From Methylovulum sp. (GTDB lineage Bacteria; Pseudomonadota; Gammaproteobacteria; Methylococcales; Methylomonadaceae), in the NCBI GenBank assembly GCA_028713595.1, contig JAQTNZ010000171.1:1-6151 (forward strand): DNA of 6,151 nucleotides, written 5' to 3'. The position numbers and the translations under genes are program-made. Shown one piece after another: positions 406 through 6,151 of this stretch. Numbering within the stretch: the first letter of the stretch is position 1; each line of letters opens with the position of its first letter. A model generated the notes under the pieces. That model saw nothing but the letters and a program-made list of their open reading frames with translations. It searched no databases and had not been told where the DNA came from.

Positions 406-416
406 GTGACAATCAC
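406..416. promoter_or_regulatory. operator-like palindrome O1
   Basis: GTGACAATCAC, a GTGAC-N-GTCAC palindrome with one mismatch. It is the most upstream of three copies, 30 bp (about three helical turns) from the next. It lies just upstream of the -35 box of the rightward promoter, and could also act on leftward transcription. Confidence 0.6.
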
Positions 417-425
417 AAATAATGC

Positions 426-454
426 TTGACTTTGCGTGACCGTCACGTTATTAT
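426..454 (+). promoter_or_regulatory. sigma70-type promoter for the rightward regulator pair
   Basis: TTGACT (426-431), a 17-bp spacer and TATTAT (449-454) make a near-consensus sigma70 promoter. Transcription should start near 461-463, just before the third palindrome, and run into the gene at 490. The perfect palindrome O2 fills the spacer, so a bound repressor would block RNA polymerase directly. Confidence 0.75.
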
Positions 455-455
455 G
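432..455 (+). repeat. 24-nt near-direct repeat, copy 1
   Basis: TTGCGTGAC-C-GTCAC-GT-TATTATG matches the block at 1051-1074 at 21 of 24 positions. In this copy it comprises operator O2 plus the -10 box. Confidence 0.75.
436..446. promoter_or_regulatory. operator-like palindrome O2 in the promoter spacer
   Basis: GTGACCGTCAC, a perfect inverted repeat around one central base, located between the -35 and -10 boxes. It belongs to a 24-nt block repeated at 1051-1074. Confidence 0.7.
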
Positions 456-463
456 TACTTACC

Positions 464-474
464 GTGACAATCAC
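464..474. promoter_or_regulatory. operator-like palindrome O3 at the start of the transcript
   Basis: GTGACAATCAC, identical to O1 and 28 bp from O2. It sits at or just after the predicted transcription start and only 4 nt before the AAGGAG ribosome binding site, a position suited to autorepression. Confidence 0.65.
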
Positions 475-489
475 ACAAAAGGAGCAGAA

Positions 490-780
490 ATGATGAACAA
501 CGCCGACCAACTCCGCACCGTCCGCGATTCCGTAATGGAATCTATGGCCATGCTTCGCGCAGGATTCAAAAACGCCGCAAGCGGACACGCCGCAGAAGCT
601 CGCGGAAAAATAACCCTTGCGCTATCGCTCGGCATTATCTCCACAAAAACCGCTACCGCAGGCGATACATGGATACACGCCGTGACCGTTTTAAAACTCG
701 CCGGACATGAAGACCACCGCGAAACGGCGGAAAAATCAGCATGGACGAATTTTGATGAGCTGATAAGGGGCGAAAAGTGA
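490..780 (+). CDS. small soluble protein, probable phage regulatory-module gene
   Basis: A 96-aa product that I do not recognise. The open frame begins upstream at 436, but that ATG overlaps the promoter and O2. The ATG at 490 follows an excellent AAGGAG 5 nt away, so it is chosen (the next codon is also ATG). The protein has no membrane segment or signal peptide and is predicted mostly helical: residues about 4-30, then an Ala-rich stretch (AASGHAAEARGKITLALSLG) and a C-terminal part rich in charged residues. A helix-turn-helix is not obvious. It is the first gene behind a promoter loaded with palindromes and overlaps the next gene by 4 nt (GTGA). By position it resembles the repressor/antirepressor slot of lysogenic filamentous phages, as with RstR of CTXphi, but no sequence similarity to those is visible. 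A DNA-binding role is inference. Confidence 0.8.
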   Translation: MMNNADQLRTVRDSVMESMAMLRAGFKNAASGHAAEARGKITLALSLGIISTKTATAGDTWIHAVTVLKLAGHEDHRETAEKSAWTNFDELIRGEK

Positions 781-1058
781 AACAGCCAGACGACAACCGC
801 ACCCTAACGCTAATTCCTGAACCGAAAAAACGCGGCAGACCTGCCACCGGCAACGCACGGACAGCAGCACAAAGAAAAGCAGACCAGCGGGCGCGAGACA
901 TGACAGCAGCAATCGAAGAACAGGACTTGTCTGGCGTTTCCAATTCCGGATTACTCGAAATGCTAGCAATGGGCGAAAGACAGGGAATGAAACAGACCGG
1001 CGATTTTGCTCATCTAATCTGGCGTGAAATCGGAAAACGACGCGGCTTTATTGCGTGA
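777..1058 (+). CDS. small basic protein with AT-hook-like motif, putative DNA-binding regulator
   Basis: A 93-aa product starting at GTG 777, which overlaps the stop of the preceding gene (GTGA) and follows an AAGGGG site about 7 nt upstream; coupled translation is likely. Residues 17-25 (KKRGRPATG) contain the Arg-Gly-Arg-Pro core of an AT-hook. They are followed by a long basic helix (residues 28-41, many Arg/Lys/Gln) and an acidic-to-basic helical C-terminal half ending GKRRGFIA. Short phage proteins with a K-R-G-R-P-x-T-G start and a following basic helix are common and generally thought to bind DNA; that is family-level recollection, not a database hit. Its 3' end overlaps the convergent zot by 11 nt, and palindrome O4 begins within its last codons. 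It is the better candidate of the pair for binding the GTGAC-N-RTCAC sites, though AT-hooks prefer AT-rich minor grooves, so a different partner is possible. Confidence 0.8.
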   Translation: MKQPDDNRTLTLIPEPKKRGRPATGNARTAAQRKADQRARDMTAAIEEQDLSGVSNSGLLEMLAMGERQGMKQTGDFAHLIWREIGKRRGFIA

Positions 1059-1866
1059 CTGTCACACTATTATGCGAGTAAACCGGAAGCCACCCTACCC
1101 TCTCGAAAATCTTCACAAGCACATACATTGGCACCCGCCACAGAAGCGAGAGAATAAACCGCCAGCCCAAGGGCGGCGGAAGATACCGACCTTCCAGATG
1201 CCACCGCGAAAGCTGGCTATGCGGACCATGCGGGTAATCATCCGCAATCACCTGCTTAGTGTTGTAACACTGGTAAAGGTCTTTAGAACGGAAAACCCAG
1301 CGATCCGCTTTAATCTTATTCTTGTACATCACCGAACCTATATGCATTTTCGGAAGCTTGAACGGCTTACCATTCTTTTTGAAGGTCCGACCCCATGAGC
1401 CAATTATCGGAATATTAATCTTCGACAAATCGGACATAGGAACAACGTAATCCATGAGCAGGCTGACCAGCTGGGAGTCGATTGCCGTATGCGACTGACA
1501 AAGAAAAATAATATCCCAACCGTATTTACGAGCATGAACAAACCAGTCGCGCATTTCCTTGCGGCCTTTTTCCTGCCAGCTTTGCGAATTCAACCAGGTG
1601 GCCATTTCATCAAGAATCAACAGACCATTATTATCCTCATCATAGCTTTCGTTCGCATTACCCAGCGCATAGAGATCATCCGCTGAAGGTCGATCCGGAA
1701 GCCTGATATACGTAGTTTTCGATTGAGGCGAACTACCCAATTTATCAAGAAAAATATCCAGATTGCCAGCAATCTTACAGCCATTAGTTGCGTACTGTTT
1801 CAGCATGCCGACAGAAGCAAGCGTCTTGCCAGAACCCAGCCCACCCTCTACAAACCAGACTGTCAT
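1048..1866 (-). CDS. zot: Zot / pI-like filamentous phage assembly ATPase
   Basis: This 272-aa protein belongs to the Zonula occludens toxin (Zot)/pI family, the inner-membrane ATPase that extrudes filamentous phage. It opens with a P-loop: Walker A GGLGSGKT at residues 8-15, immediately after a hydrophobic strand. Walker B is LLILDE at 82-87, with the acidic pair D86/E87, followed by the family-typical region WFVHARKYGWDIIFLCQ at 108-124. A hydrophobic segment at about 234-253 is the likely membrane anchor. Only about 20 residues follow, so the large C-terminal periplasmic domain of CTXphi Zot is absent and toxin activity should not be inferred. ATG 1866 overlaps the pVI stop as TAATG with a weak RBS, implying coupling. 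It is the last leftward gene and its 3' end runs 11 nt into the convergent gene at 1058. No secretin follows, unlike gene IV after gene I in M13. Confidence 0.93.
   Translation of the reverse strand: MTVWFVEGGLGSGKTLASVGMLKQYATNGCKIAGNLDIFLDKLGSSPQSKTTYIRLPDRPSADDLYALGNANESYDEDNNGLLILDEMATWLNSQSWQEKGRKEMRDWFVHARKYGWDIIFLCQSHTAIDSQLVSLLMDYVVPMSDLSKINIPIIGSWGRTFKKNGKPFKLPKMHIGSVMYKNKIKADRWVFRSKDLYQCYNTKQVIADDYPHGPHSQLSRWHLEGRYLPPPLGWRFILSLLWRVPMYVLVKIFERVGWLPVYSHNSVTVTQ
1051..1074 (+). repeat. 24-nt near-direct repeat, copy 2
   Basis: TTGCGTGAC-T-GTCAC-AC-TATTATG, 21 of 24 positions identical to 432-455. It spans the convergent 3' ends of the regulator gene and zot. It keeps the palindrome and TATTAT, but the -35 position (GCTTTA) is poor, so promoter activity is doubtful. 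Confidence 0.75.
1055..1065. promoter_or_regulatory. operator-like palindrome O4 inside the 3' end of zot
   Basis: GTGACTGTCAC, a perfect palindrome, about 590-650 bp from the promoter cluster. On the minus strand it encodes the Val-Thr-Val-Thr near the Zot C-terminus. It could bind the same regulator as O1-O3 and allow looping across the two-gene module. Confidence 0.55.
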
Positions 1867-5021: not shown

Positions 5022-6044
5022 TCATGCGAAAGCGTTCGCCAGAATCACATCCTCAGACAAGCGCATCGACAACCGACGATGCAACGGTTCAGGCGAATTC
5101 GCCCAGTGCGGCACATTCAGCCGAGAAGGAATCTTTTTGAACTTGCCGACTTTTTCGAATGCCTGCGCAGCACCACCTTCGATTTCAGCAACCACCGCAA
5201 GCGCCGATCCACACTGTTTAACCAGCCATGCGCACATCGAGGCGTAACTGATTTCCGTGGATTTTTGAATGGTTTTGATTCTTTGCTGATTGGCCTCAAG
5301 CCAGCCGAAAGCCGGATAAGAGGCGGCAAGGTATTCCCCGGGCCGCAATAGCGCATCGAACGGAATTACACGATCCACCGCCTTGAATTCAACTTCAATC
5401 CGACACCAAAGCGAATCACCGTCACCCAACTGTTTACCCTTTTCGTAAATACGAGCATATTTACCGTTGACCCGATGCCCGACATAGAATGTACGACCCT
5501 TGCCATTCGGCTTGTACCAATTACCGCGCTGCTCACAGTCCGGCATGCGCCCACCATTGTTAAACCGCCCTAGCTCAAACTCCTGTTTGGCCTGATCCAC
5601 GCTATAAGTAGACCCGTCATAATCATCATGCGCGAGGTCAAGCCGGGTCAGCCTTGGCTGAATTGCCTGCAACGTCAAGAAGTCATGAAGGCGTTTTTCC
5701 CATCCCGGCTTTGCAGCCGCCAGACCATCACCCGAAACCATGACCAACACCGTATTTCGTTGACCACCATGACAAAGCAAACCGAACTTTTCACCCAGCT
5801 CATAGGATTTTTTGTAGAAATTCCGACCGGACGAATTGGCACAAGTAATGCCATAGCCAAAGATTTTTTCCAGCTTTTCAGAGAAAGAAAGCACTATTTC
5901 GTGATCCGTGACCAACGTACCCGACCCAAACAAATGAGCGGTTGTTTCATGAACAGTAAAATTCAACCAATCCACAAACGCAGTCTTTCCACCCCAACCC
6001 CGGCGCTTAGGAACAAGCAAAACCTTTCCAGAATCAGACAGCAC
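5022..6044 (-). CDS. rolling-circle replication initiation protein (Rep_trans / phage RstA-like)
   Basis: A protein of at least 340 aa resembling the Rep_trans replication-initiation family (as in CTXphi RstA and neisserial phage Rep). Visible hallmarks are FVDWLNFTV at residues 23-31, RLTRLDLAHDDYDG at 131-144 (the conserved RLDLA-x-D motif), and RTFYVGHRVNGKYARIYEKG at 184-203. Tyr200 in RIYEKGKQLG is the best candidate for the nicking tyrosine by analogy with pT181-type Reps. Acidic residues follow in RIEVEFK (215-221). It would nick the double-stranded origin and start plus-strand synthesis. The start is uncertain. GTG 6044 has no usable RBS, and the same frame stays open upstream through DAPPLLTGGESGSGEENVKL to the window edge, a stretch that looks like genuine protein. 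The boundary given here is therefore a minimum. Homopolymer tracts in that extension may affect the frame. Confidence 0.88.
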   Translation of the reverse strand: MLSDSGKVLLVPKRRGWGGKTAFVDWLNFTVHETTAHLFGSGTLVTDHEIVLSFSEKLEKIFGYGITCANSSGRNFYKKSYELGEKFGLLCHGGQRNTVLVMVSGDGLAAAKPGWEKRLHDFLTLQAIQPRLTRLDLAHDDYDGSTYSVDQAKQEFELGRFNNGGRMPDCEQRGNWYKPNGKGRTFYVGHRVNGKYARIYEKGKQLGDGDSLWCRIEVEFKAVDRVIPFDALLRPGEYLAASYPAFGWLEANQQRIKTIQKSTEISYASMCAWLVKQCGSALAVVAEIEGGAAQAFEKVGKFKKIPSRLNVPHWANSPEPLHRRLSMRLSEDVILANAFA

Positions 6045-6076
6045 AAGCTTTACGTTTTCTTCTCCGCTTCCACTTT

Positions 6077-6100
6077 CCCCCCCTGTTAGTAGGGGGGGGG
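6077..6100. repeat. homopolymer stem-loop (C7 / G9), possible origin element or phase-variable tract
   Basis: CCCCCCC-T-GTTAGT-A-GGGGGGGGG: an 8-bp perfect stem, nearly all G-C, with a 6-nt AT-rich loop (ACTAAC on the minus strand). AT-rich loops on GC stems are typical nick sites of rolling-circle origins. The same bases lie in the open upstream extension of rep, where length change of the tract would shift frame. Confidence 0.6.
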
Positions 6101-6104
6101 CATC

Positions 6105-6148
6105 AGCGCTTCGCTCGCCGTCCGGCCCTGCGGTCCGGGCGGCGCGCT
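6105..6148. repeat. tandem GC-rich hairpins, possible origin or packaging structure
   Basis: AGCG-CTT-CGCT (6105-6115) is followed directly by CGCCGTCCGG (6116-6125), a 9-nt loop and CCGGGCGGCG (6135-6144), a 10-bp stem with one G-T wobble. CGCT at 6145-6148 can alternatively pair with the AGCG at 6105. With the C7/G9 hairpin, three stem-loops lie within about 70 nt, like the hairpin cluster of filamentous-phage intergenic regions. Which one serves replication and which packaging cannot be told. Confidence 0.55.
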
Positions 6149-6151
6149 CCA

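What the first reader, a model, noticed from the sequence alone, without database searches (positions are those of the whole stretch)
406..474. Compact operator array with a repressor site in the promoter spacer
Three GTGAC-N-RTCAC palindromes spaced 30 and 28 bp apart lie on nearly the same helical face. They flank and occupy a near-consensus sigma70 promoter (TTGACT-17-TATTAT), and the last one touches the ribosome binding site. This is a textbook layout for cooperative autorepression of the 490-1058 pair and would act as the lysogeny or copy-number switch. I recognise neither the operator sequence nor the proteins from known inovirus repressor systems such as RstR.
Basis: partly seen in the sequence, partly recalled or inferred. 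Interest (0 to 1): 0.7.

Follow-up and report, generated by a model that had tools for sequence, protein, structure and literature searches.

The report
Phage self-switch with mirrored DNA sites
A filamentous bacterial virus carries four copies of a short, nearly mirror-image DNA word, three around one promoter and one on the stop codon of its second gene, and that gene belongs to a large family of small proteins, without a known function, whose genes often carry such words, so its product likely grips these words with one charged helix and would turn its own promoter down.

Summary
The three sites are real: GTGAC-N-RTCAC at 406-416, 436-446 and 464-474. Four exact sites compare with 0.006 expected.

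ORF2, not the gene pair, goes with the sites. ORF2 belongs to a family of 684 profile hits; ORF2 itself matches no Pfam, NCBIfam or PDB entry. The constant part is a GRP tag plus a basic helix, A-[EQ]-R-X4-x-x-X7-R; tails vary. Blind half-site counting puts GTAAC-N2-GTTAC first upstream of relatives, with GTGAC-N1/2-GTCAC high. GTNAC palindromes precede 37 of 77 relatives versus 5 of 146 control stretches. In 47 of 83 loci a -10 box starts within 4 bp after a site (random 4%).

X4 and X7 co-vary with the half-site's middle base: 86 concordant, 0 discordant, 5 ties. My first one-residue rule failed in part and was refined; independence is weakly supported.

Best reading: ORF2 dimers likely bind GTGAC-N-GTCAC and repress their own promoter. 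The lysogeny-switch role and 'same helical face' are not supported; ORF1 looks like a passenger. Binding is untested.

The parts
406..416 (+). Operator site 1, GTGACAATCAC, upstream of the -35
426..431 (+). -35 hexamer TTGACT
436..446 (+). Operator site 2, GTGACCGTCAC, in the promoter spacer, 2 bp before the -10
   Evidence: a -10-like hexamer 0-4 bp after a site in 47 of 83 family loci with upstream sites
449..454 (+). -10 hexamer TATTAT
464..474 (+). Operator site 3, GTGACAATCAC, just past the inferred transcription start
481..484 (+). GGAG ribosome binding site of ORF1 (read from the sequence)
490..780 (+). ORF1, 96 aa, narrow distribution, probably a passenger
777..1058 (+). ORF2, 93 aa, the likely regulator (GRP tag, basic helix, helical tail); GTG start overlaps ORF1's stop
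825..854 (+). Codons of the KKRGRPATGN tag (residues 17-26)
864..917 (+). Codons of the predicted basic helix, residues 30-47; X4 = K34, X7 = Q37
   Evidence: AlphaFold; residue/half-site link
1055..1065 (+). On the other strand it reads VTVT near the end of the zot-like gene
   Evidence: same placement in L140, L148, L157, L162, L168, enriched over other ORF ends
1048..1866 (-). Zot/pI-like morphogenesis gene, convergent with ORF2; its 3' end overlaps site 4

Best explanation
ORF2 encodes a small protein that likely dimerises and uses one basic helix (residues 30-47, predicted) per subunit to read the GTGAC half-sites at 406, 436, 464 and 1055, and binding over the promoter would repress its own operon. 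Shown by calls: the sites; the promoter match; the family; the repeated co-occurrence of family genes with GTNAC palindromes; the coincidence of sites with -10 boxes; the link between helix residues X4/X7 and the half-site's middle base. Predicted: the helix (AlphaFold monomer). Inferred: dimer, direct binding, repression, and an extra role of site 4 (looping or a roadblock where ORF2 meets the convergent zot-like gene). Its use to the phage is most likely to hold this operon, and through it replication or copy number, at a set level; that step is the weakest.
For: Sites far above chance (4 vs 0.006); the paired array is private to this contig in the held host assembly. ORF2 relatives found in IMG/VR by protein have two such sites 34-35 bp apart: L002, with a terminal repeat, has them upstream (GTGACAGTCGC, one mismatch); L001 has them at the contig's far end, upstream only if the contig is circular, which I did not show. 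L140 (Sulfuricella MAG) has two upstream and one on its stop codon. Blind ranking of 5-mer half-sites puts GTAAC-N2-GTTAC first and GTGAC-N1/N2 high upstream of relatives; neither is in the 12 top rows of the controls. 37 of 77 vs 5 of 146, Fisher 1.4e-15. A 5-of-6 TATAAT wholly outside the site, 0-4 bp after it, in 47 of 83 loci vs 4% at random positions. Palindrome-first, with no protein in the query, 39 of 117 IMG/VR stretches have the basic motif within 200 nt upstream vs 31 of 4680 random positions. In 121 listed family proteins VTVT, the translation of GTNAC-N-GTNAC, occurs 43 times vs 0.13 expected by composition; 8 of 9 with DNA are palindromic. Helix residues predict the half-site: 20 G:G, 66 other:other, 0 discordant, 5 ties; the third test, rule fixed beforehand, agrees.
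Against: No binding or expression data. 54 of 153 family loci show no GTNAC-N0-2-GTNAC in the scanned stretch, among them some with the K helix (L145, L146, L171). The pre-registered one-residue rule failed for 4 of 10 Q loci with sites in test set 2 (two of the four after a register correction by eye). Many loci are related: on supported tree branches only one independent pair can be counted (13 changes on the best tree). The AlphaFold model is a monomer of moderate confidence with no structural match. Pseudomonas inoviruses have a separate HTH gene, so the biological role may differ. Pooled spacings do cluster (mainly 25 and 33-34 bp; Rayleigh at 10.5 bp p about 1e-6), but they come from related loci and the window's 30 and 28 bp fall between.
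Confidence: 0.77

Rival explanations
1. The sites work mainly as replication or copy-control iterons bound by ORF2, and promoter control is a side effect.
For: Sites inside the gene of an O-like replication initiator, Streptomyces phage TurkishDelight gp71; family genes on small plasmids, some beside an annotated rep gene; depositor label 'replication regulatory protein RepB' on Pseudomonas phage 42-1.
Against: In 47 of 83 loci a -10 box follows a site within 4 bp; three of four window sites bracket a promoter; the window's Rep gene (5022-6149) has no exact site.
Confidence: 0.2
2. ORF2 activates rather than represses the promoter, or does both depending on dose.
For: Site 1 lies upstream of the -35, where activators bind.
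Against: Site 2 fills the spacer and site 3 lies just past the inferred start, typical of repression (established knowledge).
Confidence: 0.1
3. ORF1, or a complex of ORF1 and ORF2, is the binder.
For: ORF1 is the first gene behind the promoter.
Against: ORF1 has four hits in the protein set, none in IMG/VR and 1 of 237 family genomes; the sites lie directly before the ORF2-like gene in L140 and the Aeromonas plasmids and before a different ORF in L002; no Pfam or NCBIfam family matched ORF1.
Confidence: 0.05
4. A host factor binds the sites.
For: Single GTGAC-N-RTCAC sites occur elsewhere in the host assembly (30 strand-wise matches, 6 of them in the window; 13 for the reversed control pattern); the outer bases resemble a CRP half-site (recalled).
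Against: The paired array occurs only in this contig, and the half-site changes with the element's own helix.
Confidence: 0.04

Closest known systems
RptR repressor of type I restriction islands (PMC12255303; abstract, passages and one results section read)
   Same: Small autorepressor, helical dimer, three short palindromes at the -10, one recognition helix per half-site (its authors' model); its authors call it bZIP-like
   Different: Site TAGCTA, crystal fold with recognition helix alpha4; no chain named RptR among the matches of our profiles in the PDB sequence search
Eukaryotic bZIP basic regions (NFIL3/C/EBP, PMC10941009, passages read)
   Same: Basic helix reading short palindromes, TTACGTAA for NFIL3; one relative, L148, is predicted as basic helix plus a 44-residue helix
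   Different: No sequence match found; ORF2's predicted tail is two short helices, not a zipper; homology not shown
Inovirus repressors Pf4r (PMC8402870, search listing with start of abstract only) and RstR (recalled)
   Same: Phage-encoded regulator of a filamentous phage
   Different: ORF2 matches no HTH family; related Pseudomonas elements carry both an HTH_3 gene and a family gene
PHROG families phrog_6334 and phrog_10506 (unknown function)
   Same: ORF2 matches both over its N-terminal part (E 7e-9 and 1e-6); so do the five relatives scanned
   Different: No function recorded there
Pseudomonas phage 42-1 'replication regulatory protein RepB'
   Same: Family member with GTGACGCGTCAC 1 bp before TATAAT
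   Different: Helix AERARRYR, spacer of 2, longer tail; the label is the depositor's

Membership tests
GRP/basic-helix family defined here (profile A2) | GRPxTG tag followed by A-[EQ]-R-X4-x-x-X7-R | tested here: met
   the window is a row of A2, so this is partly by construction
GRP/basic-helix family defined here (profile A2) | GTNAC-N0-2-GTNAC sites at its own gene | tested here: met
   window; 99 of 153 loci have a site
bZIP | Recognisable bZIP sequence or PDB relative | tested here: not met
bZIP | Basic helix continuous with a leucine zipper | tested here: not met
   predicted models only: ORF2 helices 30-47, 56-64, 75-89; in L148 helix 67-110 is separate from helix 32-58
RptR | Sequence or structural match | tested here: not met
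   no RptR chain named among matches; a missing fold match is weak evidence
RptR | TAGCTA-type 6-bp palindrome | tested here: not met
   (400-480 read by eye)
Ribbon-helix-helix | RHH strand and two helices | tested here: not met
   ORF2 model has no strand; no RHH family. Some relatives' tails look RHH-like by eye only; L143 matched no RHH entry
Cro/C1-type HTH inovirus repressor | HTH_3 or similar domain | tested here: not met
   for ORF2; met by the separate genes in L312 and L319
Autorepressor with promoter operators | Protein binds and represses its own promoter | not testable with these tools
   needs gel shift and reporter

The most novel reading that the evidence does not exclude
One short basic-helix module, a bacterial and phage counterpart of the bZIP basic region, reads GTNAC palindromes by a two-residue code and has been grafted onto unrelated tails: inovirus autorepressors, plasmid regulators, H-NS-fused proteins and O-like replication initiators. 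Genes of the family carry their own binding sites in the coding sequence, as VTVT codons or with the stop codon inside a half-site.
Probability: 0.45. Interest if true: 0.85.

Novelty: new variant of a known kind. Interest (0 to 1): 0.72.

Why it matters
If right, hundreds of unnamed small proteins on inoviruses, small plasmids and prophages become regulators whose target sites can be read from two residues, and their promoters become predictable. It would add a bZIP-like mode of DNA reading to bacteria beyond RptR, make testable whether such modules are old or convergent, and give filamentous phages and small plasmids a regulator type that does not depend on HTH repressors.

Tried and rejected
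Palindrome pair as a specific marker: rejected. 78 of 117 IMG/VR stretches with paired GTGAC-N-GTCAC have no basic motif within 200 nt upstream by my pattern, and 31 of the 39 that do are one group. Three of the 78 are the inoviruses L001, L055 and L058, where the sites go with a family gene in the other order. A scan for GTGACNGTCACNNTATTAT gave 9 stretches that I did not follow up beyond running the family profile on them.

One-residue code (X4 = K reads GTGAC; Q or M does not): held in test set 1 (21 of 22 Q/M loci with sites, the 22nd, L268, mixed; nine of the 22 share one helix 8-mer; one K locus with sites as predicted, L269, and one without, L271, both read by eye because the script misread their register). 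It failed in test set 2 for 4 of 10 Q loci with sites (L285, L286, L297, L304). I then wrote down a two-residue rule and tested it on 13 of the 66 rows listed (some records are listed twice), picked for variety before their sites were seen: 9 of 9 Q/aromatic loci lacked GTGAC..GTCAC; 4 of 4 A/Y loci have GTGACGCGTCAC at the promoter, but three of them also have a non-G in-gene site, and the four are close relatives. In one search five ties, 54 siteless and 17 unassigned rows are counted apart (9 rows are both siteless and unassigned), and 8 rows had no readable helix; one search dropped ties, siteless and unassigned rows and let S stand at X7 with M.

The first -10 test (53 of 83 vs 7%) let the hexamer start inside the site, which favours sites; the stricter form (47 of 83 vs 4%) is.

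Stop-codon site as a roadblock between convergent genes: not general; downstream of L162 the only long ORF listed runs the same way, and at L168 ORFs are listed on both strands. Helical phasing: not supported for this window. PDB and fold searches: nothing convincing. Named phages with ORF2 or L058 as query: no match. The only paper found for six literal sites, on NFIL3, prints one as the complementary strand 3' to 5', so it is a coincidence. Ten paper searches listed no description of this family that I recognised; most listed papers were seen as listings only, and closed papers and preprints are not held.

Full report
What the window is. The 6,151-base window is a whole contig (G000:C171) of an unnamed host assembly. 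It reads as a filamentous-phage genome: Rep (Rep_trans), gp8-like major coat protein, a Zot/pI-like morphogenesis gene and others on the minus strand, and two small genes, ORF1 (490-780) and ORF2 (777-1058), on the plus strand.

The observation. A fourth exact site, 1055-1065, contains the stop codon of ORF2 and shares a 24-nt, 88% identical stretch with 432-455. Four exact sites stand against a mean of 0.006 in 500 shuffles. Pairs 12-42 bp apart occur nowhere else in the held, 77% complete host assembly. The 'same face' claim fails: -51, -120 and about -171 degrees. The last promoter site stops 6 bp short of GGAG.

Which protein goes with the sites. Of four IMG/VR loci found by ORF2's protein sequence only, L001 and L002 carry two sites (L001 at 6017 and 6051; L002 at 8 and 43, GTGACAGTCGC). 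L002 has a terminal repeat and the sites lie upstream of a 70-aa ORF and the ORF2-like gene; in L001 the gene starts at the contig's beginning and the sites lie at its end, so they are upstream only if it is circular. L003 and L004 had no GTGAC-N1-GTCAC, though L004 has a GTGAC-N2-GTCAC site. A Sulfuricella MAG relative (L140) has sites at -51 and -25 and one on its stop codon. ORF1 has four hits, itself included, among 5.8 billion proteins and 1 match, its own, in 237 family genomes, against 27 of 237 for profile A2.

The family. A profile search gave 684 relatives among the 7,993 candidates scored, 120 of them listed. The constant part is RGRPxTG...A-[EQ]-R-X4-x-x-X7-R; the tails differ (H-NS PF00816 in several; a zipper-like helix in L148; RHH-like by eye in some). 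ORF2 matched no Pfam family but for one chance-level hit and no NCBIfam family (5 proteins scanned); 10 relatives stayed below every Pfam cut-off, and over 79 members the best Pfam E-value was 0.006 with no family matched by more than 3. Profile A2 found no PDB chain, A3 only designed proteins and ribosomal L20 at E 0.02 or worse. AlphaFold of ORF2 (79 sequences, mean pLDDT 77.9) gives helices 30-47, 56-64 and 75-89, without a convincing Foldseek match.

Sites are a family trait. Counting all 5-mer half-sites blindly, GTAAC-N2-GTTAC tops the list and GTGAC-N1/2-GTCAC is high, in 44 and 77 loci; neither is among the 12 top control rows shown. 37 of 77 loci vs 5 of 146 control stretches have a GTNAC-N0-2-GTNAC within 300 bp upstream; 34 of the 77 have none there or in the gene plus 200 bp (L002's sites lie farther up). 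Of 136 distinct loci 83 have one within 420 bp, and in 47 of these a 5-of-6 TATAAT begins 0-4 bp after a site, against 4% at random positions. Of 101 family genes 7 have a site on the stop codon vs 14 of 2,741 other ORF ends more than 500 nt away (Fisher 4.5e-6); in six of the seven (window, L140, L148, L157, L162, L168) the stop sits inside the first half as G-TRA-C. In-gene sites leave VTVT: 43 occurrences in 26 of the 121 proteins then held vs 0.13 expected by composition; 8 of 9 with DNA are palindromes. These loci and proteins are not all independent.

The reverse search. Scanning IMG/VR for paired GTGAC-N-GTCAC without any protein gave 117 stretches. In 39 the basic motif lies within 200 nt upstream in an open frame, vs 31 of 4,680 random positions, in 7 crude families, one with 31 members. 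A named relative of that large group, Streptomyces phage TurkishDelight gp71, matches replication-initiation PHROGs, O-like ones among them, so some in-gene sites may be origin repeats; that is inference.

The code. Details of the three tests are in Tried and rejected. Pooled over 153 loci: predicted G/observed G 20, predicted other/observed other 66, ties 5 (all predicted G), predicted G without site 21, predicted other without site 24, unassigned 17 (6 other, 2 G, 9 without site); no discordant case. By distinct helix 8-mer: 14 and 30, 3 ties, 0 discordant, p 9e-12. The rule was partly fitted to these data. The window's own row counts there by site 4 only. On a quick tree without the two positions, 93 of 93 rows agree and both traits change 13 times, but only one independent pair lies on supported branches.

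Named relatives. Pseudomonas phages WX_Y, 42-1 and 5a-DAzarov, Phage blackswan219-1, Aeromonas plasmids pAhy2.5, pAerI, pHS28 and pAsa1, and small Klebsiella and Citrobacter plasmids have family ORFs with sites; in blackswan219-1 and pAsa1 the ORF is not annotated as such. In WX_Y and 42-1 GTGACGCGTCAC is followed by GTATAAT, the same order as site 2 and the -10 in the window.

Mechanism. ORF2 dimers likely occupy sites 1-3 (starting at about -55, -25 and +4 from an inferred start near 461), block RNA polymerase and so set their own level; site 4 may help by looping or as a roadblock. Comparison supports recognition strongly, repression by layout, and the phage-level role only weakly. RptR is the closest worked-out analogue, but membership in its family was tested and not met.

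Noticed in passing
window 6077-6100: A run of seven C, an 8-base loop and a run of nine G lie upstream of the predicted Rep start (6044, minus strand); it may be a hairpin or origin element.
   Followed up: no
window 1048-1080, minus strand: Site 4 reads VTVT in frame near the C-terminus of the convergent zot-like gene (YSHNSVTVTQ), the same peptide that in-gene sites leave in ORF2-family proteins.
   Followed up: partly
L281:1480-2769 (Streptomyces phage TurkishDelight gp71): Replication-initiator-like gene with a basic motif followed by GTGACCGTCAC and further GTGAC/GTCAC words inside the gene, like lambda's origin in O (recalled).
   Followed up: partly
P0008, P0009, P0046, P0093 and others: ORF2-family proteins joined to an H-NS domain (PF00816), some with several VTVT motifs between.
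   Followed up: no
L278, L279, L280: Aeromonas plasmids of 2.3-2.8 kb, two with an annotated rep gene, carry a family gene with two sites 25 bp apart upstream and one site inside the gene.
   Followed up: partly
L029, L091, L067, L122, L129: Other phage contigs carry dense GTGAC-N-GTCAC arrays with no basic motif found nearby by my pattern; another binder may use the same word.
   Followed up: no
L320 (Pseudomonas aeruginosa plasmid CP137443): Three places in one 6.5-kb record match the family and rep/hypothetical genes repeat, so the record looks like a tandem repeat of a small element.
   Followed up: no
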